From the IMG/VR virus record IMGVR_UViG_3300030108_001404, positions 7,302-50,188 of that record: a stretch of 42,887 nt of DNA, one strand, 5' to 3'. Shown in pieces: positions 24,244 to 40,509 of this stretch. Below the pieces are notes generated by a model. That model worked only from the letters and a program-made list of their open reading frames with translations, ran no database searches and had not been told where the DNA came from. Origin of the DNA: a virus. A program made the translations under genes and the position numbers. Each line of letters opens with the position of its first letter. Position 1 is the first letter of the stretch.

Positions 24244-26463
24244 TTAACTTATAATTTTTGATGTCGATCCTTTGTTGTTATATTTTTTAATACCTAAATC
24301 AACAGGTTTTAATTCTCTTGCAGCTACTGGGGTGTATCTATGTTTGTTACACGCCATTAAAGCTAAACCTGAACTAATCGAAGCATCATGAGTTGTTCTA
24401 TTGTTTATATTAAATTTTGCCCAATCTTCTAATGTTCTTTGAAAATACATATCTCCATATCCTGTTTCTTTTAAACCTACAAAATGTTCTATATATGTTT
24501 CAATAGCAGCTGCATGAGCTTGTTTTATATCTTCACTAGAATTAGGTATACCACCTATTTCTCTTTCTGTAACTGATAATTTATTTCTTACTTTATCAGG
24601 TCTATTCATTGCAAAACCTCTATAGCCTCTACGTTTAAAATAATATAAAAGTCTTGGTTTATTATTTTCTACAAGTATTGGCATACCATAAAAAACACAC
24701 GCCATTAATACATCTTCAAAAAATATTTCAGCTGTTTGAGGTCTAGCTATATATTCTAAGAAAAAATGATTTGGTGGAGCATTTTCCATGCTAAATTTTG
24801 TTAATCCGTGCAAAGAACCATTTGAACCTCTTTTATCTACAGTTCCTGATATATCATAAGGATCGCAACCAAAAGCACCCATATGTTCATTGCTAGGATA
24901 ATTTATACCATTTTTAATATATCTTCTGTTTTGTACGTTTATATCTGGTATCCAAGTAATAAAAAATCTTCCTTGTTTATTTGGTATAAATATAACTTTA
25001 GTATCTTGTTTACTATCTTCCCATTGAAAATTACCTTGAGTTACACTTATACTATTTTTTAAATCTTCATTAAAATCTATTTGTTCATATATTTTAGTTA
25101 GATTAAATAAAGATTGTTTTGACTCATCTCTAAAAGCATGTTTAGTTGTACGAGGAAACTGTCTATAAAATTCATTTAAAGCGTCTTGATCTTGCTTTAA
25201 ACCTTCTACTTCATTGTCCCAATATTCTATAACACCTTGCTTTATTAATACACCATGAGGGTCTTTAACTTGTTTTTTCGGTGTATCGAATACAGGTAAT
25301 CCATAAGAATCAATGTATCCTTCGTAATTCCATTCCATAGGTATGAACAAACTATATAATCCTGAGCGAGTCTGTCCATTGCTGTTTCTTTGTGTGACGT
25401 CTGAGTTATCATATAATTTTTTAAATTCTTTACCACCTTTATCTAAAGAGTTTGATGTTGAACCCATCATACACTTTCCAATAATTCTACTACCTAATCT
25501 TAATGTGGTTTTCGTAACCCTCCAGTTATTGAGGATGTTGTTTGGCTTTTCCCATTTACCGGACTCGTCGTGAACGAGAAGTTTGAGTTTCTCACCGTCA
25601 TAGGAGTTGTCACCTGTATTTTTCCAATCGATGGTTGTGTCAAGACCTTGTAATTCGTCTTGTAAGGTTTCGTCGGCTGTGGCGGTAAGCTTACGACGGG
25701 TATACTTGGTTGCGGGGACACGATAGGCAAGCTCGGTCTTTGGACGGTCCATTCCGTCCTGGGTCGGTTTGAAAAAGAAGGGATAATTAACTGATATGGG
25801 TACCACCTTATCTGTGAACATCTTCTTTGCATCAGGACCGGACTTGGATAATATACCATACCTACTGTCACTTGATATGGTTGCCAAGTTAACCACCTCT
25901 CCTGAGGCCATGAAAGAAAACCCGGAACGCCTGTTCTTAAGGTAACACATCCCATAGGATCGTGAATCTGCCTTGCAAGCTTCCCAGAAAATAAAGAATA
26001 ATCGATTTGACTCCCTAAAGTCTGGTGCCCCGACGTCAATCTTAGACCACTGCAGGTACATGTAATGAGTACCACTAATATAAGTAGGAGCATCTTTGTT
26101 ATAAAACCAAAAACCTTCTTCTCTACGGGTAAACTCGTTATCAATGTAATCATACCATCTTTCTTTAAAATCTTCTGGATATTGTTTAAAATCAAATACT
26201 GTTTTTATTTTACTTAAAACTTTAGGATATTCAAACCGGCTCCATTTATTATCTTTAAACTTATGAATACTTTTTGCTTTTGGTAAAGCTATTTTAAGAT
26301 TTTGTATTTCATATATATCACCTATTGTACCATCTTTACTAATAACAACCATATCATGTTGATCATTATAACCATACTTCCATTTTTTATGTTTATTATA
26401 TTTTTTAAGAGTACTAGGTGTAATATAATCTTTTAGTATTGTATATAAAGTTTGATTATACAT
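24244..26463 (-). CDS. terL: Terminase large subunit
   Basis: A 739-residue DNA-packaging motor. The ATPase half shows a Walker A-like loop at residues 176-183 (KNRRSGFS, lacking the classical GK[ST]) and a Walker B at about 295-300 (LLVHDE, D299-E300 catalytic pair). The nuclease half has a first acidic residue D534 in GCDPYD and a final D693 in THDASISSG, typical of the RNase H-like terminase nuclease. It overlaps the upstream 92-aa gene by one base (TAATG) and abuts the portal gene. Residues about 133-321 are encoded by DNA with sharply different GC content and codon use (AAG, ACC, CGT, GTC and CTC rather than AAA, ACT/ACA, AGA and TTA), although the frame is intact; see findings. Confidence 0.92.
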   Translation of the reverse strand: MYNQTLYTILKDYITPSTLKKYNKHKKWKYGYNDQHDMVVISKDGTIGDIYEIQNLKIALPKAKSIHKFKDNKWSRFEYPKVLSKIKTVFDFKQYPEDFKERWYDYIDNEFTRREEGFWFYNKDAPTYISGTHYMYLQWSKIDVGAPDFRESNRLFFIFWEACKADSRSYGMCYLKNRRSGFSFMASGEVVNLATISSDSRYGILSKSGPDAKKMFTDKVVPISVNYPFFFKPTQDGMDRPKTELAYRVPATKYTRRKLTATADETLQDELQGLDTTIDWKNTGDNSYDGEKLKLLVHDESGKWEKPNNILNNWRVTKTTLRLGSRIIGKCMMGSTSNSLDKGGKEFKKLYDNSDVTQRNSNGQTRSGLYSLFIPMEWNYEGYIDSYGLPVFDTPKKQVKDPHGVLIKQGVIEYWDNEVEGLKQDQDALNEFYRQFPRTTKHAFRDESKQSLFNLTKIYEQIDFNEDLKNSISVTQGNFQWEDSKQDTKVIFIPNKQGRFFITWIPDINVQNRRYIKNGINYPSNEHMGAFGCDPYDISGTVDKRGSNGSLHGLTKFSMENAPPNHFFLEYIARPQTAEIFFEDVLMACVFYGMPILVENNKPRLLYYFKRRGYRGFAMNRPDKVRNKLSVTEREIGGIPNSSEDIKQAHAAAIETYIEHFVGLKETGYGDMYFQRTLEDWAKFNINNRTTHDASISSGLALMACNKHRYTPVAARELKPVDLGIKKYNNKGSTSKIIS

Positions 26464-26741
26464 TATTTAGACCTCCCTTCTGCAAAACCTTTAAAATTTG
26501 ATTTTTTCTTTTCTTCAACTTTAGGCTTGTCTTCTAACATATTTTTTTCTTCTTCAATACGATTAAGTATTTCAAAAGCATCAAATATAGCTAGTTTTTT
26601 TGTAGCTGCAGCATTTTTAAGTCTGTCTGCGGAAATATCAGGACCATAATCTATAATAGGTTCTTTAGCAACTTTAATTAACTCTTTGACTGCTACTTGC
26701 CCAGCTTGGATTATATTCTTCTTCGTTTCCTTGGTGCTCAT
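26463..26741 (-). CDS. Candidate small terminase subunit
   Basis: A 92-residue protein whose stop overlaps the TerL start by one base, the usual spot for a small terminase. It is helical, with a well-ordered core (DISADRLKNAAATKKLAIFDA at about 35-55, then FEILNRIEEE) and a basic C-terminal tail (KKKSNFKGFAEGRSK). The only usable ATG is at 26741, so its first 68 bases overlap the end of the upstream gene in another frame. The TerS call rests on location, size and helical content. It has no clear helix-turn-helix. Confidence 0.5.
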   Translation of the reverse strand: MSTKETKKNIIQAGQVAVKELIKVAKEPIIDYGPDISADRLKNAAATKKLAIFDAFEILNRIEEEKNMLEDKPKVEEKKKSNFKGFAEGRSK

Positions 26742-27291
26742 ATTTAATTACAATATCATTTGATTCCATACAATATAAACGCTTACCGTCTACTAAAAAC
26801 TGCCACTCTCTATTTGGTTTAAAACCAACTAAATCTCCTTCGTTTATATTAAGGTTTTTTAAATTCGTATTACCGTGTTTTAATATACCTTTTAATTTTT
26901 GTTCTTTATTTGTAGTAAAATCACTCTTATCTTTTATTGGGTGCACAAAACATCTGTTTGCAAATGAATGCCAACCTTTAGAGTTTTTATATAAATATAT
27001 TTGATCTAAACTTACAAAATAAAGATTATCTTTAAACCATGATCTACTAACTTTTTTATTACCACGTATGTCATAAAAAGTTCTAAATACATTTTGATGT
27101 ATTACAATAGTATCACCTTTTTTAATTTTTGTTTTAAAAGCAATTGGTGTTTCAATTACTTTAGCTAGTCTATTTATAAAAGTCCATGATTCAATTTTAG
27201 TATTAACAACTAGTTTTTTATCACCAACTTGTATTTCATTATTGTATTTATCACCTAAAGGTTCTACAATAAAATCATATAAGCTTTTCAT
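26674..27291 (-). CDS. Protein with two GroES-like halves, next to terminase
   Basis: A 205-residue protein that reads as two consecutive GroES-like beta-barrel units. Residues 5-101 contain FIVEPLGDK, a VIETP turn, IKKGDTIVIH and a closing LYFVSLDQIYLY. Residues 113-184 contain CFVHPI, a KGILKHG segment, INEGDLVGF and a closing KRLYCMESNDIVIKY. Each half follows the GroES order: hydrophobic-P-hydrophobic start, G-D-x-V strand, then an aromatic strand ending in S/E-x-D-I. T4 gp31 and related co-chaperonins of phages are GroES-fold proteins required for capsid folding, so a role in folding head proteins is plausible. The duplication is inferred by eye. Its last 68 bases overlap the next gene. 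Confidence 0.55.
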   Translation of the reverse strand: MKSLYDFIVEPLGDKYNNEIQVGDKKLVVNTKIESWTFINRLAKVIETPIAFKTKIKKGDTIVIHQNVFRTFYDIRGNKKVSRSWFKDNLYFVSLDQIYLYKNSKGWHSFANRCFVHPIKDKSDFTTNKEQKLKGILKHGNTNLKNLNINEGDLVGFKPNREWQFLVDGKRLYCMESNDIVIKYEHQGNEEEYNPSWASSSQRVN

Positions 27292-28164: not shown

Positions 28165-29808
28165 TTATGTTATATTATTTGTTAATTCTGCCATTTCAGA
28201 ATCTGTTAATGTTCTTCTAAATACTTTTACATCTTTAACTCTTCCGTAAAAATTATTACCTGTAGATCCATCGTATGGTATAAAACCAAATTTATCTAAT
28301 TTACCGTTAAACGTAAAAGTAGAGTTGTTTGTAAAACTTTGTGAACCATTTACAAAAGCAGTAATTTCACCTGTTTTATATCTTATAGCTACTTTAGCAA
28401 ACTTATTTAAGGTTTCTGTTGTTGTTAAGTTTATACTATTAGACATCGCGTTTACACTAGCTGCTCTTACTTGAAAACTCCAATTTGAACCACCGCCTCT
28501 AAATAATAACAACCTATTATTAGAACTACTTTCCTGCGAAATACCTATACTTGTTTGATTTGGATTTGCAAATCCTAACTCTGTAAACTCTACATACATT
28601 GTTCCTTCTTGGTTATTAAAAACCCCTCTTTGACCTGCGTTATCACACAATTCTACATTTCGAGTTACTGTAGAACCAAATGTTGGTATGTAAGATGTAG
28701 GATAACTTTGTTGTTCAAGTTGAAAACCAAATAAATACAAACCGCTAGTTCCATCTCCTTCGTAATAATAATTGTTTATAGCTTTACCCATATATACAGC
28801 AGCAAAATTATAACCACCTGAATTTGTCACTGTTTTTGTTGTTGAACATCTAAACCATCCATTACCAAAATCTTCTATTGTACTATTAGCATCACTAACT
28901 GTTCCATTGATTAAATCAAAGTTATCTGTTAAATTTGAAGTGCCATCAGCATATAAGTTTAACCTTAATAAATGTCTTTCTTTAGCTTTTGCAAAAACAC
29001 TTAAAGTATATGTTGTAGCACCTGCTGTTGGAAATATAGCTGATTTAATTGCCCCGTGTGATGCAGTGGCTGTGTTTTCCACATATAAAGCAGCGTTTTG
29101 TAACCCTTCAGGACTTGTTATTTGATTGTCTAATTTAGTTGCAGCGGTAGGATCTACATCATTACTTTTAGGAAACAAATTGGTAGACTGCGGTTCAAGT
29201 AATAAACTCGGTTTTTGTAATTCTTTTGCTTTACCTATTTCTGTAAGGTAATCTATTCTAGGTGTATTTAAATCTATTTGCTTTACTGAAACATTATCTA
29301 TTTCTATAATACGACCTGAGCTTGCTTGAAAACTAATACCTTGGCTTGAATAGTTTATATAAACAGTATGAGTTCCTACATCTAAACTACTAATATTTGT
29401 AGTGTTTCCACCCCCGTAGTTTCTAATCTGCATTACACCTATTCCATTGTTACTTTTAATTGTAAAAGTAATTTCTACTAAATTTATTATAGCAGCGTTA
29501 TTTTGTCTACACCTTGAGTATGAAACACCAAATGTACTGTCTAATTTTACAAAACCATTAGCAATAACAGCATTACTTGTTAAATTCCAATCAGTGTCAG
29601 TATCAAAATTTCCGTTAATTACTAATTCATTATTAGTAATCCCAGAATATTTTATAAAACCATTACAGTCTACATATGTAGCTAATGTGTTTCTTGTAAA
29701 ATCTAATGGCTGAGGTATAAATGTTTCATGATCTGTGAAGTCACACGAAAGAACGTTACCAGATTTTATTGCTGGTTTATTTGGTACTTCAAAATAATCT
29801 TTTAGCAT
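28165..29808 (-). CDS. LamG/ConA-like receptor-binding tail protein (copy 1)
   Basis: A 547-residue protein. The N-terminus has a phage FTRNTLATYVDCNGFIKY element (the F-x-R-x-x-x-A-T-y-v-x-x-x-G-x-I pattern of many tail proteins). A CBM-like module follows, with the NGWFRC and FQLEQQSYPTSYIPT signatures. The C-terminal 160 residues form a LamG/ConA-lectin-like sandwich (EGTMYVEF; KVAIRYKTGEITAFVNGSQ; FYGRVKDVKVFRRTLTDSEM). LamG-fold domains often bind glycans. It overlaps the next paralogue by 7 bases. The two downstream-strand neighbours share the same architecture, so this is one of three paralogues. It is likely a surface-exposed fibre or spike that contacts host polysaccharide. Confidence 0.7.
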   Translation of the reverse strand: MLKDYFEVPNKPAIKSGNVLSCDFTDHETFIPQPLDFTRNTLATYVDCNGFIKYSGITNNELVINGNFDTDTDWNLTSNAVIANGFVKLDSTFGVSYSRCRQNNAAIINLVEITFTIKSNNGIGVMQIRNYGGGNTTNISSLDVGTHTVYINYSSQGISFQASSGRIIEIDNVSVKQIDLNTPRIDYLTEIGKAKELQKPSLLLEPQSTNLFPKSNDVDPTAATKLDNQITSPEGLQNAALYVENTATASHGAIKSAIFPTAGATTYTLSVFAKAKERHLLRLNLYADGTSNLTDNFDLINGTVSDANSTIEDFGNGWFRCSTTKTVTNSGGYNFAAVYMGKAINNYYYEGDGTSGLYLFGFQLEQQSYPTSYIPTFGSTVTRNVELCDNAGQRGVFNNQEGTMYVEFTELGFANPNQTSIGISQESSSNNRLLLFRGGGSNWSFQVRAASVNAMSNSINLTTTETLNKFAKVAIRYKTGEITAFVNGSQSFTNNSTFTFNGKLDKFGFIPYDGSTGNNFYGRVKDVKVFRRTLTDSEMAELTNNIT

Positions 29809-31835
29809 GGTATTGTATAGTTTCCTAACGCTGCCACCATACCAGAGTATGCTGAGTATTGCGTTGATGTTATTGTATATAATTCTGTATCTGTAAGCGC
29901 TCTATTATAAGTAGCTAAACCTTTTACTTTTCCGTAAAATATTGTATTTCCTGAATCAAAGTTTACTTCTGTGAATGTTCCTGCTGCATTAACACTTCCA
30001 TTTGTATCTGTACCAATCTCGTTTCCATCTATCCAAAGAGCAAAATCATTAGCTTTCCATTTACAAGCAATTTTATGAAAATCTACAATGTCAAAAGTTG
30101 CAGTACCAATTCCTGCTTGAGTTGCACCACCAATTTTATATACAAACTTAATTTGATTTGAAACATTTGTATATTGTAAATATGCTCTGTTATTCGTGCC
30201 ACCATCTGAAACCGATAATATTTCATATTCTAAATCGTTAGCAAGTGCAGCTATCTCTGCATATAAAACACCTTCTTCACTATTAAACGTGTTTACATTT
30301 CCAGCGCTATTACAAGTTTCTTGAACTCTAGTTTCTTGTGATCCTGCTGTGGGTATGTAAGATGTAGCATAGTCTTGTTGTTCTAACATAGCTCCCCAAA
30401 CAAAAATAGAAGTAGTGTTTGTGCCGTTCTGTCTATCAATGTCTATTTCAAAATTACCACTTGTTCCATCTGTTGTAAATGAAAAACCTATTCTATACCA
30501 ACCATTACCATAATCTTTTAATATTTCGTTAGTTCTTGTGCCACTTGTTTGTCCCGTTGGTCCAAAAGATAATCCATTTGCACCCCATTCATAACTTTCC
30601 CTAAATAAAGTACCACCACTAACTCTAAAAGCCAATGTTGTTACACTTCCTGTAACATTAGTATCATTTTTAACAAAAACACTTATGTTATAAACAGTTG
30701 AATTGCTAACAGAAATAGTTTCTAGCACTCTGTCATTTGCATTTGTGCCTAATTTTGTAATTTTATCTGCTGTTATTTTACCATCAGGACTTGTTGTAGA
30801 ATTAGATGTTTCTGTGCTTCCGTTTTTACTCCATTGACTAAAATCCTCACTAAATGTAACAAGATTTGTAGACTGCGGTTCAAGTAAAAGATGTGGACAA
30901 GTTGGATTTGATGGATCGTAATCTAATCTTGGTTTATCGCCTAGTACTTCTACTACGCTTATACTTGATACGCTTCCCACCCCATTACCATCATTACTTC
31001 TTATAGATAAAGTTGTCCTATCAGCAGGAGGTGTCATGAAATCAGTATATATGCCTGAAGAACTCATTGCATTACCTGAAAAAGAGCCACCACCTTGAAA
31101 TTGTATTGTAAAACTACCTGATGTAATTGTTATATCAGTAACTACTTTGTATGTTTTACCACCTTCAAAACTTATACTTTGTGTTGCTGCTGTATGCCCA
31201 CTATCTCCTGCACAAGATAAAATACCATCTCCATAACTCCAACCTGTACCTAAAATCCAATCATTATCTGGATCAACTTGTTTTACTGATACGTTGTCGA
31301 TTGAGCCTGTAAAATTTGTAAAACCTTTGAATCTAAAATTTATACTTGCTCCGTTTGCTACAAAATACTGTGTAAATGTTCCGTTATTATTTCTTGTTGA
31401 CAAGTTTTGTACAGGGTTACCACCTCCTGATAATTGAGGTCTCACAGAGCCTGATACATAATTGCTAACAGTATATACTAATTTATAGGTTTTATTTGCT
31501 ATGAAAGAAATACCTGTTTGTGATAATAAATTATTCGTAACATTATTAGCAACAGCTTTACCATTGCTTATACTCCAACCATTTCCTTTAGTCCAATTAC
31601 TGTCTGTTGCAAAATCTCCGTTTGTTATTAATTCTGGTCCTAATTCACTAAAGTTTCCATTTCTAACTAACTCATCAGAAAAATATCCTACATTTTCTAT
31701 TAACCCTTGATGATTAACACGAGTTGCTGCAGAAGCTCTAGAAAATTGAAAGTCTGTATCAATTTTATTAGGAAGTATGTTATGAACGCGCGAGTCTGAT
31801 ACTGCGCTAGGTAGCATTAATAATCCTGGTTTCAT
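29802..31835 (-). CDS. LamG/ConA-like receptor-binding tail protein (copy 2)
   Basis: A 677-residue paralogue of the flanking genes. It begins with FQFSRASAATRVNHQGLIENV, the conserved N-terminal tail-protein element. Two CBM-like beta modules follow (ELITNGDFATDSNW and the GTGWSYGDG region), then a module ending WGAMLEQQDYATSYIPT. The LamG-like C-terminus has EEGVLYAEI, HKIACKWKANDFALWIDGN and FYGKVKGLATYNRALTDTEL. It starts by ATGA overlap with copy 3. Internal duplication of the CBM-like unit explains the greater length than copy 1. Confidence 0.7.
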   Translation of the reverse strand: MKPGLLMLPSAVSDSRVHNILPNKIDTDFQFSRASAATRVNHQGLIENVGYFSDELVRNGNFSELGPELITNGDFATDSNWTKGNGWSISNGKAVANNVTNNLLSQTGISFIANKTYKLVYTVSNYVSGSVRPQLSGGGNPVQNLSTRNNNGTFTQYFVANGASINFRFKGFTNFTGSIDNVSVKQVDPDNDWILGTGWSYGDGILSCAGDSGHTAATQSISFEGGKTYKVVTDITITSGSFTIQFQGGGSFSGNAMSSSGIYTDFMTPPADRTTLSIRSNDGNGVGSVSSISVVEVLGDKPRLDYDPSNPTCPHLLLEPQSTNLVTFSEDFSQWSKNGSTETSNSTTSPDGKITADKITKLGTNANDRVLETISVSNSTVYNISVFVKNDTNVTGSVTTLAFRVSGGTLFRESYEWGANGLSFGPTGQTSGTRTNEILKDYGNGWYRIGFSFTTDGTSGNFEIDIDRQNGTNTTSIFVWGAMLEQQDYATSYIPTAGSQETRVQETCNSAGNVNTFNSEEGVLYAEIAALANDLEYEILSVSDGGTNNRAYLQYTNVSNQIKFVYKIGGATQAGIGTATFDIVDFHKIACKWKANDFALWIDGNEIGTDTNGSVNAAGTFTEVNFDSGNTIFYGKVKGLATYNRALTDTELYTITSTQYSAYSGMVAALGNYTIPC

Positions 31836-34063
31836 AAAAATCTAGTTATATCGTGTTCTGTGCATTGTAATTCTTGATCAGCACCTATCATTTGCATTCT
31901 GTTTCTATATGGTATAAATAAATCATGGTTGTTATACGATGTAAGATTTGCAAGTTCTGTGTCTGTTAAAGCTGTTTTATACACTGCTATAGCATTTAAA
32001 TCACCTCTATATTCAGCTGAATTTGCATTAACTCCATTTGAAAAATGCATCCTATCTAATCCAACTGGCATTGCCACAGTATTAGCTTGTATTCTTTTAA
32101 TTCCGTCTACAAATACCGCGCAATTATTTAGTTTGTATTTAACTGCTATTTTATGTTTTTGAGTAATATCAATACCATCAACATTACCGTTTAAACCACC
32201 ACCAGCAGTACTTTGTATAAAACCTACAACTCTAGAACTTGCTGTGTTTGGGTATGATATTACAACTCTATTTTGACCATTACCAGCATTTATACTAATA
32301 CTTCTAGCAACAGCGTTATTAACTAAAGCTTTAGTTTCTATAAATAAAACACCTTCACTATCATTAAAAGTATCTGTAGTTCCTAAACCAGAATTAATAG
32401 CTTTATCTTCATTTCTTGTTACAGTTGAACCTTTTGTGTGTATTAAAGATGTTACATAGCCAGCTTGCTCTGCCTGTCTGCCATATATTAAAAACTTATC
32501 TCCTACTACACCGCTGTTAAAAGCACTTTCACTCATAGCCATCCATTTAAAGTTGCTTTTTGATGGATCAGAGCCTGTTAATATGTTACAAGTAATTCTA
32601 TACCAATTATTTTTATAAGCTATAATTTCACAATTATAAATATTTGTCGAACTACCTGATATTCCTACAAAAGTTCCTGTATTTAAATTAAATTTAGCAT
32701 ATTGATTACCTATATCTGCTTGATAAAAACCTAAGCCAAAAAAATCTCCTGTAACTTTTTTTACATAACCACTTACAGCATAAAGAGTTGCATTAGAAAC
32801 AGCAACAGATTCTACTTTTGGTTGTGAAGCAGATGTTACTTCTATTTCTTGTGCATTATTTATACCCTCAGGAGATAAATTGTTAGATGAGTTTATTTGA
32901 AGATTTGATAAAGCATTACCTCCACCATTTGATATATCATTAGATTTTATTACTAAATTTGTTCTTTGCGGCTCAGCTAAAATCGATGGACAACCACCAT
33001 ATAAAGGATAATTTAATCTTGCCAAGTTTACTCTATCAGTTGTTGGTAAATAATCTTTTACTTTATCACCTTTAACAAATTGAGCTCCCCACATAAAAAC
33101 ACCGCTGTTTAAAACACCAGTATAATTTAATTGATTATTTGGCGCATAATATAATGATCCAGTTCTTGTTCCATTTGAAGTAAAAGTTATAGAACATCTA
33201 TACCAACCACTTCCAGCAGAAGATATTTTTGCAATATGATTAGCGTTTTGAGAATCTACAGTTCCATTTGATAAGTTAAAACTAGACAAAGGATAAGTCG
33301 GTCCACCTATTCCTAGGTTTTCATATATACTAGCTGTAGTTCTTTCCGCTGCTTTAAAATAAGCGCTAGCTGTGTAAGTAACTCCATCTTCTACTTTATC
33401 ATCATGATTAACATTATGATAAGTTCCCCCAGCGCTTTCATTTATTTTATCTCCTGTTAAAGAATTATCAGGAGCTATAATTTCATTTGCAGAAACAGTA
33501 GTACCTACTTTATCCCAATCAGCATTATCAATGTCTTGACTATAAGGTATAAAATTATAAGGCACATCTTCTATATAACCATCTTCATTAATTCTAGTTC
33601 CAGTAGTAGAACGTGTAAAGTCAAAGTCAGATCCTTGAGTTACTTGTCTTATAGAAAAATGAGTTATTGTAGTAGTACCTGCTGAATTTTGTCGTATCCA
33701 CAGTCTATTATTTCCACTTATAAATCTATGAACACCAAAACCAGAGCCATATTCATTACCTCCACCACCAAAATCTCCGAGAGTAATACCATTTGAAGTT
33801 GTAGTGCCTCTAATTTCTACTTCAAAAGCTGTTCCAACTGTTAATGTAAAAGCAGCATCTTTTGATCTTATTCCTTCAAGACCACCACCTGATGTTGTAA
33901 AGGTATTTGCGTCAACAATAACGCCACCTGATGGTGCAGCTTGAAAATCTACTTGCAAATTAACTGGTTGACTAGCTAGTTCAGATCCATAAGCGCTAGG
34001 ACCACTATATAAAATACCGTCTCCATACATACTGGGAACTGTTAATACTGAAGGTGTTGCCAT
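31832..34063 (-). CDS. LamG/ConA-like receptor-binding tail protein (copy 3)
   Basis: A 743-residue paralogue, first of the three in transcription order. It has a distinct N-terminal domain (residues 1-130) before the FDFTRSTTGTRINEDGYIED element, then two CBM-like modules (the first ending FMWGAQFVKGD, the second FLIYGRQAEQAGYVTS) and the LamG-like C-terminus (EGVLFIETKALV; HKIAVKYKLNNCAVFVDGI; YRGDLNAIAVYKTALTDTEL). It is the only one with the extra N-terminal region, which may be the attachment part to the tail. The three together look like a stacked or alternative receptor-binding set. Confidence 0.7.
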   Translation of the reverse strand: MATPSVLTVPSMYGDGILYSGPSAYGSELASQPVNLQVDFQAAPSGGVIVDANTFTTSGGGLEGIRSKDAAFTLTVGTAFEVEIRGTTTSNGITLGDFGGGGNEYGSGFGVHRFISGNNRLWIRQNSAGTTTITHFSIRQVTQGSDFDFTRSTTGTRINEDGYIEDVPYNFIPYSQDIDNADWDKVGTTVSANEIIAPDNSLTGDKINESAGGTYHNVNHDDKVEDGVTYTASAYFKAAERTTASIYENLGIGGPTYPLSSFNLSNGTVDSQNANHIAKISSAGSGWYRCSITFTSNGTRTGSLYYAPNNQLNYTGVLNSGVFMWGAQFVKGDKVKDYLPTTDRVNLARLNYPLYGGCPSILAEPQRTNLVIKSNDISNGGGNALSNLQINSSNNLSPEGINNAQEIEVTSASQPKVESVAVSNATLYAVSGYVKKVTGDFFGLGFYQADIGNQYAKFNLNTGTFVGISGSSTNIYNCEIIAYKNNWYRITCNILTGSDPSKSNFKWMAMSESAFNSGVVGDKFLIYGRQAEQAGYVTSLIHTKGSTVTRNEDKAINSGLGTTDTFNDSEGVLFIETKALVNNAVARSISINAGNGQNRVVISYPNTASSRVVGFIQSTAGGGLNGNVDGIDITQKHKIAVKYKLNNCAVFVDGIKRIQANTVAMPVGLDRMHFSNGVNANSAEYRGDLNAIAVYKTALTDTELANLTSYNNHDLFIPYRNRMQMIGADQELQCTEHDITRFL

Positions 34064-34765: not shown

Positions 34766-35221
34766 TTATTTTTGTTTAAATATATTACTTGCCTTTTCTG
34801 TCGTACGTCCGCCAAAATAGGCTAAGACTACTGCCATCATTACTTTTTCAAACGTATCGTTCCATAGTTCATTTATATGAAATGGTATAGTTTCAACACT
34901 GTCTAATATTCCAGCTAATGAAAATATACATATACACCATATTAAAACTAATGGTCGTACGTTTTTTGACATCCATGAATCACTCATAGAGTCAGCTTGC
35001 CATCTTGATGTAATGGCTTCAATTTCTTTATTTTGTTGATCGTATATTAATTGTTGTAATTTTACTTTATCTTCAGCTGGTGCATCTGATTTAGTAATAG
35101 CTTCAATAGCTTCTTTTGGAGATGTTACACCTTGTAATACACTACCTAATGTAGGATTTATTGCTGATGCAGCACCGAACAATATTTGACCAACAGTTGT
35201 ATCTTTAAATTTTTTACTCAT
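34766..35221 (-). CDS. Holin, 3TM/GTA-type
   Basis: A 151-residue protein with the signature of the 3TM holin family (GTA-holin type): RWQADSMSDSWMSKNVRP at residues 73-90, directly followed by a transmembrane segment (91-107, LVLIWCICIFSLAGILD) and a second one (about 126-138, KVMMAVVLAYFGG) ending in GGRTTEKA. The N-terminal half has a weakly hydrophobic stretch (VGQILFGAASAINPTLG) that could be the third. It would permeabilise the inner membrane at lysis. It overlaps the HExxH gene by 4 bases, suggesting a lysis module. Confidence 0.8.
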   Translation of the reverse strand: MSKKFKDTTVGQILFGAASAINPTLGSVLQGVTSPKEAIEAITKSDAPAEDKVKLQQLIYDQQNKEIEAITSRWQADSMSDSWMSKNVRPLVLIWCICIFSLAGILDSVETIPFHINELWNDTFEKVMMAVVLAYFGGRTTEKASNIFKQK

Positions 35222-35526
35222 GCTTTTCTATATGCTTCTGCTTCCCAAGGTAAATTTTTAGCGCCTTCTTTCATTTGAGCTCTTGAGTATTTTTTACCTT
35301 TCCAATATACATAGTTATCATCATAATCAAGATCACCTCTACGCATTTGATCTATATGTACTTTTTCATGCGCTATAACCTCTGGTATTTGATGAGGTTT
35401 TAAATCTTTATTTAAAATGATAGTTCCATTGTTATTAGCTTTGCCCATAACACCTGCTTCCATATCTACATGATATACTGGAGTATTGTCAATTTTATAT
35501 GGAGGATTTGTTAATTTAAAAGCCAT
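35218..35526 (-). CDS. Minimal zincin-like (HExxH) protein
   Basis: A 102-residue protein with a zinc-metallopeptidase motif H53-E54-K-V-H57 in VIAHEKVHIDQM, and a downstream Glu (E95 or E97 in LPWEAEAY) positioned to be the third zinc ligand as in gluzincins. Strands precede the motif (PVYHVDMEAGVMGK; GTIILNK). It is much smaller than typical peptidases, so it is either a minimal catalytic domain or a degenerate one. It sits between a 48-aa gene and the holin, overlapping the latter by ATGA. A role in lysis or virion maturation is inference only. Confidence 0.65.
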   Translation of the reverse strand: MAFKLTNPPYKIDNTPVYHVDMEAGVMGKANNNGTIILNKDLKPHQIPEVIAHEKVHIDQMRRGDLDYDDNYVYWKGKKYSRAQMKEGAKNLPWEAEAYRKA

Positions 35527-38284: not shown

Positions 38285-38721
38285 CTTGTTTTATCTTTGT
38301 TTAAATTATAAATTGCTTTTGTCATTACTTTATCCATATATGAAGTGCCAGTTATTATTTTATTTCTACTAGCAACGTTTATATCTTCATGACCAAGCAT
38401 TATTCTATATATGCGCTGAATTAATTGTTTACCTTTAAATGATATTTTATATATATTATATTTTTGTGTAGTTCTATTTCTATTACGCCACACAACTATC
38501 CAATCATTTTGTATTAATTTATTCCACCTACGATTATTCCAACTGTACGTATATGTACCAGCTTTAAAATCTTTTATTGTAAACAAATCAATGCAATCAA
38601 GGTATATTAATAATTCTAAATCACTATCGGTTAAATTATTGTTTTTGCAAGCCCATTTGCGTATTACTCGATAGTGTTTCATTAAGTTTAAATCCTTAAT
38701 ATCTTTTGCACTTAATCTCAT
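38281..38721 (-). CDS. Winged-helix-like (MarR-type) small protein
   Basis: A 146-residue basic protein. Residues about 20-105 follow a winged-helix order: a helix and turn (NNLTDSDLELLIYLDCIDLFTIKDF), a recognition-type helix (NNRRWNKLIQNDWIVVWRNR), then a beta hairpin and helix (YNIYKISFKGKQLIQRIYR). This pattern is common to MarR-like regulators. The C-terminus is a basic extension. It overlaps the groES stop by 4 nt (ATGA). It may regulate late transcription or bind DNA in another context. The fold call is by pattern, without a diagnostic motif. Confidence 0.6.
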   Translation of the reverse strand: MRLSAKDIKDLNLMKHYRVIRKWACKNNNLTDSDLELLIYLDCIDLFTIKDFKAGTYTYSWNNRRWNKLIQNDWIVVWRNRNRTTQKYNIYKISFKGKQLIQRIYRIMLGHEDINVASRNKIITGTSYMDKVMTKAIYNLNKDKTR

Positions 38722-38978
38722 AAAACAACTACAATATCTTGAGCTTTAATTACACGATAAGATTTTTTATCAATTTCTATTTTATGACCAGCATGACGAT
38801 CAAAATATATTTTATCATCTTGTTTTAATCCTACAACTTCATCACCTACTGAAACTATACTAGCTTCAACATATCTAATGTCTTCACGTTGGTTTTCTGC
38901 AAGAAGTAAACCACCTTTTGTTTTAGTAGTTCCTTCTTTTATTATATTTATTATTAAATTTTTACCTACTGCTTTCAT
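38718..38978 (-). CDS. groS: Co-chaperonin GroES
   Basis: An 86-residue protein from the ATG at 38978; a TTG three bases further upstream is possible but less likely. It has the GroES order: KAVGKNLIINI start, a mobile loop (about residues 15-26, ending GGLLL in place of the usual G-G-I-V-L), VEASIVSVGDEV, LKQDDKIYF, HAGHKIEIDKKSYRVIKAQDIVVVL. Slightly shorter than bacterial GroES (about 97). It overlaps the end of groEL by 17 bases and follows it, the reverse of the bacterial groES-groEL order. It would cap the phage GroEL or the host's. Codon use is as AT-rich as its neighbours. Confidence 0.9.
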   Translation of the reverse strand: MKAVGKNLIINIIKEGTTKTKGGLLLAENQREDIRYVEASIVSVGDEVVGLKQDDKIYFDRHAGHKIEIDKKSYRVIKAQDIVVVL

Positions 38979-40509
38979 CAACTCTAATATTATTAATTAC
39001 ACAATCTGTTGATAAAATAGTAGTTGCCACTGAAGCTGCATTTTGAAGAGCGCTTTTTGTAACTAACAGTGGATCAATAATACCACTATTAATCATCTTT
39101 ACCATATTTCCTGTAACAACATCAATACCTTCACCATCTGAACCTGATATTCTATATTCTTCATATCCAGCATTAGCTAGTATTGTTTTATAAGGAGATA
39201 ATATAGCTCTACCTAAAACTTCTTCACCTACATTTTTTTCTTTTATTTTTAATGCAGCGTTTAGCAAAGCAACACCACCGCCGGGAACAATCCCTTCTTT
39301 TATTGCAGCTTTAGTAGCACATATAGCGTCTTCAACTCTATCTTGTTTTTCTTTCAATTCAATATCAGAGTTAGCGCCTACTTTTACTATTGCTATTTTG
39401 GCAGCTAACATAGCAAGTCTTTTTTCTAACTTAACTACTTCGTTTGCTGTATTTTTTTTGTTTAATTTATTTTTAATTTCGTGTATTACTTCTTTTACTT
39501 CATCAGAAGTATTTTTTACTTGTAATATAGTTTCTTTTTCAGTAGTAATGCTTTTTACACATTTACCTAAATACTCAACTTTAATTAAATCTAAATCATC
39601 ACCTAAGTCTTCATTTATAATTGTAGCGCCAGTTAGTAAAGATAAATCGTCAAGTAATTGTTTTCTATTAACACCATATGTTGGCGCGTCAACTACATTG
39701 ATCTTAATATTACCTTTTATTTTATTCATAGCTAGAGCCGATAAAACACCTTTTTCTAAGTCGCCAATAATAAGCAAAGGTTTATTGTTTTTTATTACGT
39801 ACTCTAGCACTGTTTGAATTTGTCTTATAGAATCTATTTTTGATTCTACTAACAGCACTAATGGATTTTCTAATTCAGCTGACTGATTTTCAGCGTTAGT
39901 TATAAAATGCCTATTAGTTAATCCTTTTTCATATTGTGCGCCTTCAACTAGTTTTATTTCTGTTTTACCAATAGCTGACGGCTCCATCATTACTACACCT
40001 GTAAGATCTACAGCTCTAAATGCATCAGCAATTAATTTTCCAAGTTCTGGGTCATTGTTTGTTGATATTGTAGCAATGTGATCGATCATATCTCCTTCTA
40101 CTGAAACAGATATTGATTCTAAATATTTTACAACTTTTTCAACAGCAGAGTTTATACCTTCTTTTAATACTCTTGAATTTGTTTTATCAGCAACTTTATA
40201 TGCTTCTTGTAATATAGCATGTGCTAAGACTGTTGCAGTGGTAGTACCATCTCCTGCTTGTTGAACTGTTTTACGTGCTGCTTCTTTTAAAAGCGTAGCA
40301 CCCATGTTTTCTACTGGATCTAACAAAATTACTGAGTCAGCTACTGTTACACCATCTTTTGTAATAATTGGTTTACCTGTTGCATCTTCAAGTAATACAC
40401 ACTTGCCGCTAGCCCCAAGCGTGGAGCTAACAGCTTGTGTAAGTTTTGTTATACCCTTAAATACTTGTTCTCTGGCTGTATCGCCAAAGTTAAGATTTTT
40501 AACTATCAT
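38962..40509 (-). CDS. groL: Chaperonin GroEL
   Basis: A 515-residue group I chaperonin, about 30 residues shorter than bacterial GroEL. ATP-site elements are intact: TKDGVTVADS, D87 in GDGTTTATVLA (the same number as in E. coli GroEL), and D394 (equivalent to the catalytic D398) in VEDAICATKAAIKEG, followed by VPGGGVALL. The apical segment that contacts GroES and substrate (YLSPYF in E. coli) reads LTNRHFI here, so binding specificity may differ. The C-terminal GGM tail is absent; the protein ends NNIRVDESSR. Phage-encoded chaperonins are known, including in virioplankton. Probable role: folding of phage structural proteins. Confidence 0.95.
   Translation of the reverse strand: MIVKNLNFGDTAREQVFKGITKLTQAVSSTLGASGKCVLLEDATGKPIITKDGVTVADSVILLDPVENMGATLLKEAARKTVQQAGDGTTTATVLAHAILQEAYKVADKTNSRVLKEGINSAVEKVVKYLESISVSVEGDMIDHIATISTNNDPELGKLIADAFRAVDLTGVVMMEPSAIGKTEIKLVEGAQYEKGLTNRHFITNAENQSAELENPLVLLVESKIDSIRQIQTVLEYVIKNNKPLLIIGDLEKGVLSALAMNKIKGNIKINVVDAPTYGVNRKQLLDDLSLLTGATIINEDLGDDLDLIKVEYLGKCVKSITTEKETILQVKNTSDEVKEVIHEIKNKLNKKNTANEVVKLEKRLAMLAAKIAIVKVGANSDIELKEKQDRVEDAICATKAAIKEGIVPGGGVALLNAALKIKEKNVGEEVLGRAILSPYKTILANAGYEEYRISGSDGEGIDVVTGNMVKMINSGIIDPLLVTKSALQNAASVATTILSTDCVINNIRVDESSR

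What the first reader, a model, noticed from the sequence alone, without database searches (positions are those of the whole stretch)
25500..26065. Sharp codon-usage and GC island confined to the TerL ATPase core
Within an intact terL frame, the segment coding residues about 133-321 abruptly changes to higher GC and codons AAG, ACC, CGT, GTC and CTC, while flanks use AAA, ACT/ACA, AGA and TTA. The boundaries are abrupt and bracket the Walker A-like and Walker B motifs (K176 to E300). Nothing else over 500 bp in the window looks like this. Explanations include recombination with a related phage of different codon bias, co-conversion left by a lost intron or homing endonuclease, selection on the DNA itself, or chimeric assembly.
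Basis: seen in the sequence. Interest (0 to 1): 0.7.

Follow-up and report, generated by a model that had tools for sequence, protein, structure and literature searches.

The report
Hidden lipoprotein gene inside phage terL
The odd GC-rich patch inside this phage's DNA-packaging motor gene is the footprint of a second, unannotated gene read in another frame of the same DNA, probably encoding a membrane-anchored lipoprotein, and it recurs in about 150 related environmental phage sequences.

Summary
In detail: terL codons 134-319 (window 25507-26064) have 53% GC3 against 13% in the rest of the gene, the strongest such run in the window. The listed causes miss the main one. The patch lies inside a 217-codon open frame in the +1 phase of the same strand (25500-26153). 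In 80 IMG/VR homologues that frame is open in every patch-bearing sequence and broken in every other. Where it stops at codon ~290 instead of ~320, the patch ends there too. An 81-sequence sister clade has the frame broken everywhere, even at GC3 0.64. Silent terL codon choices conserve a hydrophobic stretch and lipobox-like motif (LLxLLVLxxCTC-SG), followed by a basic, Pro/Ser/Thr-rich, apparently disordered tail. I conclude that terL has been overprinted by a lipoprotein gene. Chimeric assembly is excluded; I found no evidence for an intron or homing endonuclease. I found no report of such a gene in the papers searched. Function is inferred: a periplasm-facing lipoprotein, most likely an o-spanin-like lysis protein, only about one in three.

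The parts
24244..26463 (-). terL, large terminase subunit, 739 aa: the ancestral, outer frame
   Evidence: phrog_6681 terminase large subunit, E 2.5e-163; present in all relatives including clades without the second frame
25507..26064 (-). GC3/codon-usage patch within terL (codons 134-319)
25500..26153 (-). overprinted gene in the +1 frame of terL, 217 aa from the ATG at TerL codon 104 (other possible starts: TTG at 26195, ATG at 26093)
   Evidence: ATG at codon 104 in 90 of 149 open-frame loci, an ATG somewhere upstream of the hydrophobic segment in 144 of 149
26158..26166 (-). purine-rich tract AAAGAAAGA 5-13 bases before the ATG, a possible ribosome binding site (inferred; also dictated by TerL residues K-E-R)
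   Evidence: sequence read
26046..26096 (-). second frame: hydrophobic segment and lipobox-like motif KMLLLILVVLITCTCSG (TerL codons 123-139)
   Evidence: columns conserved through silent terL changes; hydropathy test; predicted helix
26052..26054 (-). proposed lipidated Cys of the second frame (over TerL Leu137, written xTG in 54 of 54 full-length carriers)
   Evidence: C-x-C motif found in 122 of 144 open-frame loci and the IGSC/TGSC form in 17 more
25713..26051 (-). second frame: first part of the mature protein (TerL codons 138-250), silent sites nearly frozen in some close pairs
25503..25712 (-). second frame: fast-changing Pro/Ser/Thr/Arg-rich tail (TerL codons 251-321)
   Evidence: disordered in the model
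34766..35221 (-). holin-like protein (context for the lysis hypothesis)
   Evidence: phrog_3427 holin, E 1.3e-17
35218..35526 (-). metallo-protease-like protein next to the holin (context only)
   Evidence: weak match to phrog_87 metallo-protease, E 5.7e-5

Best explanation
The patch is the trace of a second protein-coding gene overprinted on terL in the +1 frame of the same strand. Keeping that frame free of stops and rich in Ser, Thr, Pro, Arg, Gly and Cys requires C or G at many second-frame middle positions, which are the silent third positions of terL; hence the GC3 rise. The product is most likely made by internal initiation on the terL mRNA (inferred) and begins with a lysine-containing stretch, a hydrophobic segment and a lipobox-like Cys, so it should be exported and lipid-anchored (well supported, not shown). 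The mature part is basic (pI 10.4) and probably unstructured; it lacks the acidic surface-export signal of Bacteroidota lipoproteins and should therefore face the periplasm (inferred). My leading function is an outer-membrane-disrupting, o-spanin-like lysis protein made late with the head genes (about 0.35). The gene arose on top of terL, is present in some lineages and missing in others, and the segment appears to be exchanged between lineages by homologous recombination. The confidence given is for the overprinted gene; for the lipoprotein reading I would say 0.8.
For: Frame open 158-224 codons in all 59 patch-bearing of 80 homologues, broken (32-91 codons) in all 21 others. Patch end tracks the second-frame stop: long type GC3 0.60-0.73 over codons 291-320, short type (stop ~290) 0.21-0.29. 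Synonymous shuffles of the window expect 5.2 stops, observed 0 (p < 0.0002); the +2 frame shows no depletion. Sister clade of 81 never open although GC3 reaches 0.64. Second-frame Leu at codons 126, 127, 129, 130, 132 conserved in 49-53 of 54; Thr136 and Cys137 in 54 of 54 through silent choices that non-carriers do not share (TAT in 16 of 21; A-ending Leu in 17 of 21); at codons 126 and 129 the second-frame residue is better conserved than TerL's own. Hydropathy of second-frame residues 104-140, a test on which loci were not selected: 2.97 observed against 1.73 expected, combined p 2e-51; sister clade p 0.79. A divergent clade (65-68% TerL identity) has a more canonical lipobox (IGSC/TGSC) 16 codons earlier. 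The only lipoprotein-like ORF in the window. 138 of 139 loci have no acidic residue in the six positions after the Cys, unlike surface-exported lipoproteins (PMC5080379).
Against: No expression data. The protein resembles nothing in Pfam, NCBIfam, PADLOC or PDB, and PHROGs gives one weak hit (E 0.17); the model is mostly low confidence (mean pLDDT 44). Outside the signal region silent sites are not on average slower than in the flanks (0.181 against 0.156), so the mature sequence is weakly conserved, and much apparent similarity of the second frame is forced by TerL (non-carriers score E 1e-67 or better with 7-16 stops). Start codons vary; five loci have only TTG. Open-frame loci were classed by openness, so the pooled stop test is partly circular. 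Function as a spanin rests on analogy; no i-spanin was identified in the window.
Confidence: 0.93

Rival explanations
1. The patch is simply a terL segment imported by homologous recombination from a phage of GC-richer codon bias; the open second frame is a by-product of high GC3.
For: The core does move between lineages: L031 core is 90% identical to L030 but its flank sister is L043, which lacks the frame; silent-site divergence of core against flank varies strongly between close pairs.
Against: GC3-rich sister-clade terL genes (0.5-0.64) have a broken +1 frame; shuffles that keep island codon usage still give 3-7 stops; all carriers have AT-rich flanks, with no GC-rich donor seen; the patch end follows the frame's stop.
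Confidence: 0.03
2. Selection on the DNA or RNA itself (packaging signal, structured RNA, protein binding) keeps the core GC-rich.
For: Position within the packaging gene; third positions are the only free ones.
Against: Specific +1-frame stop avoidance and conserved hydrophobic/lipobox residues are coding signatures; silent bases in the tail change quickly while composition is kept. I did not run an RNA-structure test on the segment.
Confidence: 0.02
3. The second frame is a real gene but its product is a superinfection-exclusion or other envelope-modifying protein rather than a lysis protein.
For: Patchy presence, recombination of alleles and a fast-changing tail suit a host-interaction role; lipoproteins of this role are known (e.g. 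Ltp, PMC3952083).
Against: No Bacteroidota surface-export motif after the Cys (PMC5080379); nested within a presumably late gene.
Confidence: 0.3
4. The second frame is made by programmed +1 frameshifting, giving a TerL N-terminus fused to the lipoprotein-like part.
For: In many loci the frame is open some way upstream of the ATG.
Against: Many carriers have a +1-frame stop at codon ~98 or ~108, just before the start region; a signal peptide must be N-terminal to work.
Confidence: 0.04

Closest known systems
Rz1 and other embedded o-spanins (lambda, T7)
   Same: Small Pro-rich lipoprotein encoded entirely inside another phage gene, often in its +1 frame, and usually missed by annotation (PMC6139136).
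   Different: The host gene here is terL, not an i-spanin gene; the product is longer (184 aa mature); no i-spanin partner identified; lysis function untested.
De novo overprinted viral genes (e.g. Rex over Tax; PMC3744397)
   Same: New frame laid over a conserved ancestral gene; the codon-usage disturbance reveals it; product rich in disorder-promoting residues.
   Different: Lies in a tailed-phage hallmark enzyme; polymorphic and apparently exchanged by recombination; disturbance seen as a GC3 rise in the ancestral frame.
Phage superinfection-exclusion lipoproteins (Ltp, PMC3952083)
   Same: Phage-encoded lipoprotein.
   Different: Those are free-standing and host surface-exposed; this one lacks the known surface-export motif and is nested in terL.
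Flavobacterium phage elemo group and MW202828 (closest annotated TerL, 43% and 62% identity)
   Same: Same terL family and small gene(s)-terL-portal order.
   Different: No long +1 frame in their terL.

Membership tests
Overprinted (overlapping) protein-coding gene | Second frame open far longer than expected given the first protein and its codon usage | tested here: met
Overprinted (overlapping) protein-coding gene | Frame kept open across diverged relatives, and lost as a unit in others | tested here: met
Overprinted (overlapping) protein-coding gene | Selection on the amino-acid sequence of the second frame | tested here: met
   met for the signal region; not detectable on average in the mature part
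Overprinted (overlapping) protein-coding gene | Product is translated | not testable with these tools
   no expression data held
Bacterial-type lipoprotein (signal peptidase II substrate) | Positive n-region, hydrophobic h-region, lipobox Cys near the N-terminus | tested here: met
   Met by pattern in 139 of 144 loci; lipobox of the window type (I/T-C-T-C) is non-canonical, that of the L179 clade (IGSC/TGSC) closer to consensus. No signal-peptide predictor was available.
Two-component o-spanin | Outer-membrane lipoprotein signal | tested here: inconclusive
   lipoprotein-like signal present; sorting to the outer membrane not testable
Two-component o-spanin | Paired i-spanin (inner-membrane protein with periplasmic coiled coil), usually overlapping or adjacent | tested here: not met
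   none recognised among window ORFs by reading them; a distant one cannot be excluded. Therefore not filed as an o-spanin.
Two-component o-spanin | Needed for outer-membrane disruption at lysis | not testable with these tools
   needs a lysis assay
Surface-exposed Bacteroidota lipoprotein (LES) | Acidic residues just after the +1 Cys (PMC5080379) | tested here: not met
   138 of 139 loci have none at +2..+7
Intron / homing-endonuclease co-conversion tract | Homologues with an intron or endonuclease gene at the patch ends | tested here: inconclusive
   none seen among 306 terL loci aligned as one tblastn segment across the core; split genes were not searched for specifically

The most novel reading that the evidence does not exclude
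A family of lipoproteins born de novo inside the terminase ATPase core of Bacteroidota phages acts as a lysis (o-spanin-like) or superinfection factor that lineages gain and lose as a swappable allele of terL, with lineages lacking it using a free-standing lipoprotein gene instead (4 of 4 near-complete non-carrier records have one, 0 of 3 near-complete carriers; 4 of 13 against 0 of 14 overall).
Probability: 0.3. Interest if true: 0.85.

Novelty: new variant of a known kind. Interest (0 to 1): 0.74.

Why it matters
terL is the hallmark gene of tailed phages, used to build trees and classify metagenomic phages, and its ATPase core is the most conserved part. A ~650-base gene hidden inside that core in about two thirds of the sampled members of a widespread aquatic phage clade means that silent sites of a standard marker are under second-frame selection, that terL trees can be distorted by exchange of this segment, and that standard annotation misses a gene. 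It also offers a natural test of de novo gene birth: carriers, non-carriers and apparently decaying forms exist side by side.

Tried and rejected
Chimeric assembly: rejected, patch present in dozens of independent contigs. GC3 as cause of the open frame: rejected. Antisense overlap: antisense frames are not consistently open. Simple slow-down of silent sites over the whole overlap: not found on average; some pairs slow, some fast, which I read as recombination rather than a uniform constraint. Homologues of the product in families, PDB or annotated phages: none significant. Fold search: not run because the model is mostly below pLDDT 50. Free-standing homologue of the product in non-carriers: none in the virus records searched; each has one match, the degenerate terL place (the two MAG assemblies hold further phage contigs). 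Cultured relatives (Cellulophaga phi13:2 and Calle_2, Tenacibaculum Gundel_1, Flavobacterium elemo): +1 frame broken. Papers on a gene overlapping the terL core: none found, in an open-access library only.

Full report
WHAT WAS CLAIMED AND WHAT IS THERE. The window is an AT-rich (31.9% GC) phage contig whose own record is a 50,188-base virus record. On the minus strand at 24244-26463 lies a 739-codon terL (phrog_6681, E 2.5e-163). A scan for the best-scoring GC3 segment in terL returns codons 134-319, window 25507-26064: GC3 0.527 inside, 0.128 outside. Of 1,170 windows of 60 codons across the window's genes (mean 0.142, SD 0.076) the highest all lie here.

THE OVERLOOKED FRAME. The ORF list contains a second open frame on the same strand, 25500-26195 (231 aa from a TTG), in the +1 phase of terL. 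From the ATG at 26153 it codes 217 residues: MITLITSLPVEKKVFGFITKMLLLILVVLITCTCSGLRLTSGHQ... A purine-rich AAAGAAAGA precedes this ATG. Among 34 window genes and five alternative frames each, this is the only frame significantly longer than synonymous shuffles allow (0 of 500).

IS IT A GENE? FOUR LINES OF EVIDENCE. (1) Presence/absence: of the 80 nearest IMG/VR homologues, all 59 with raised core GC3 have the frame open for 158-224 codons within the tested stretch; all 21 without have it broken at 32-91 codons. (2) Boundaries: 34 sequences of the long type (stop near codon 320) keep GC3 0.60-0.73 to codon 320 and drop to 0.09; 20 of the short type (stop near 290) drop to 0.21-0.29 right after 290; non-carriers show nothing. 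Taken alone this could run the other way (once GC3 falls, stops appear), so (3): shuffling synonymous codons inside the island, which keeps its GC3, predicts 3.2-6.9 stops where none occur (p <= 0.0066 in eight loci tested, <= 0.0002 in five), while the +2 frame has no deficit. The 81 sister-clade sequences around MW202828 never have the frame open even at GC3 0.5-0.64. (4) Protein-level conservation through silent terL choices: second-frame leucines at codons 126, 127, 129, 130 and 132; Thr136 and Cys137 in 54 of 54 carriers although TerL Tyr136 is TAT in 16 of 21 non-carriers and Leu137 ends in A in 17 of 21; Ser138 51 of 54; Ser278 51 of 54. At codons 126 and 129 the second-frame Leu (53 of 54) is better conserved than TerL's own residue. 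A hydropathy test on which loci were not selected gives 2.97 observed against 1.73 expected in 92 dereplicated carriers (combined p 2e-51), 1.89 against 1.67 in non-carriers (p 0.005), and no excess in the sister clade (p 0.79). The pooled stop test is partly circular because carriers were defined by openness, and I do not lean on it.

WHAT THE PRODUCT LOOKS LIKE. After a Lys-containing start comes a hydrophobic segment and C-T-C-S-G. The invariance of Thr136 and Cys137 suggests that Cys137 is the lipidated residue, with Thr at -1; Cys135 is dictated by TerL Met135. One locus (L282) keeps Cys137 without Cys135; three (L223, L237, L254) keep only Cys135. In a divergent clade (65-68% TerL identity: L179, L194-L203 and others) the signal sits about 16 codons earlier with IGSC or TGSC, so two branches hold a lipobox at different places; I cannot tell a shift from two origins. 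No family or structure matches significantly. The AlphaFold model with 83 sequences has one helix over the signal region (residues 3-36, pLDDT about 79 at 21-30) and is otherwise mostly below 50. The mature part is basic (pI 10.4; 19 K/R against 4 D/E) with 34% Pro+Ser+Thr.

EVOLUTION. terL is the ancestral frame: it is in all relatives, the second frame only in this clade (149 of 228 tree rows). On a flank-only FastTree the trait changes 29 times by parsimony, at least 16 of them forced by well-supported branches, and sister pairs that differ in it are similar in silent flank sites (0.68-0.80 in most) but not in the core (0.32-0.49), where each matches its own type in other lineages. Close carrier pairs are heterogeneous: WIN/L303 7 of 105 core silent differences against 79 of 443 in flanks, L015/L019 46 of 98 against 107 of 430. 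I read this as exchange of the segment by homologous recombination, plus loss; non-carriers still have mildly fewer stops than expected (6.7 against 8.6), as relics would. No formal recombination test was run.

FUNCTION (INFERRED). A lipoprotein nested in a presumably late gene, Pro-rich, in the +1 frame, without the acidic surface-export motif (138 of 139 loci; motif from PMC5080379), recalls embedded o-spanins (PMC6139136). The window has a holin-like gene (34766-35221) and no other lipoprotein-like ORF, but also no recognisable i-spanin. Near-complete non-carrier records each have a free-standing lipoprotein gene, in G002 beside a peptidase-like gene and GroEL and in G006 beside small membrane proteins and GroEL; near-complete carriers have none by the strict scan, but overall counts are 4 of 13 against 0 of 14 (leaving out the nested frame itself), and a looser scan finds one in carrier G020. 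This is a lead, not a result. Bacteroidota hosts are likely from cultured relatives and several host bins, but bins are unreliable for phage contigs.

VERDICT. A real, conserved, previously unannotated overprinted gene; probable lipoprotein; function open. Literature searches in an open-access library found no account of it, which does not prove absence.

Noticed in passing
window 38718-40509 and 26674-27291: The phage carries GroEL (515 aa) and GroES (87 aa) genes, and a second, larger GroES-like gene (205 aa, phrog_13932) just upstream of terL.
   Followed up: no
L312:9004-9441, L313:18841-19203, L319:17438-17926, L323:14579-17442: Free-standing lipoprotein genes in four near-complete relatives that lack the nested frame; in L313 next to a peptidase-like gene and coiled-coil membrane proteins, a plausible lysis cassette.
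   Followed up: partly
L194-L203, L261, L262, L179, L177: Divergent clade in which the second frame has its lipobox (IGSC/TGSC) at TerL codon ~121 instead of 137.
   Followed up: partly
L223, L237, L254 and other loci with core GC3 0.29-0.38: Carriers with intermediate GC3 and shorter frames, some with the second Cys lost: possibly decaying or shortened versions.
   Followed up: no
window 28165-34063: Three consecutive proteins share phrog_5939 and phrog_34853 matches at different positions, suggesting tandem duplication of tail or adhesin-like genes.
   Followed up: no
L198 and L200; L229 and L268: Identical or nearly identical terL flanks from different metagenome records, useful for dating exchange of the core segment.
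   Followed up: no
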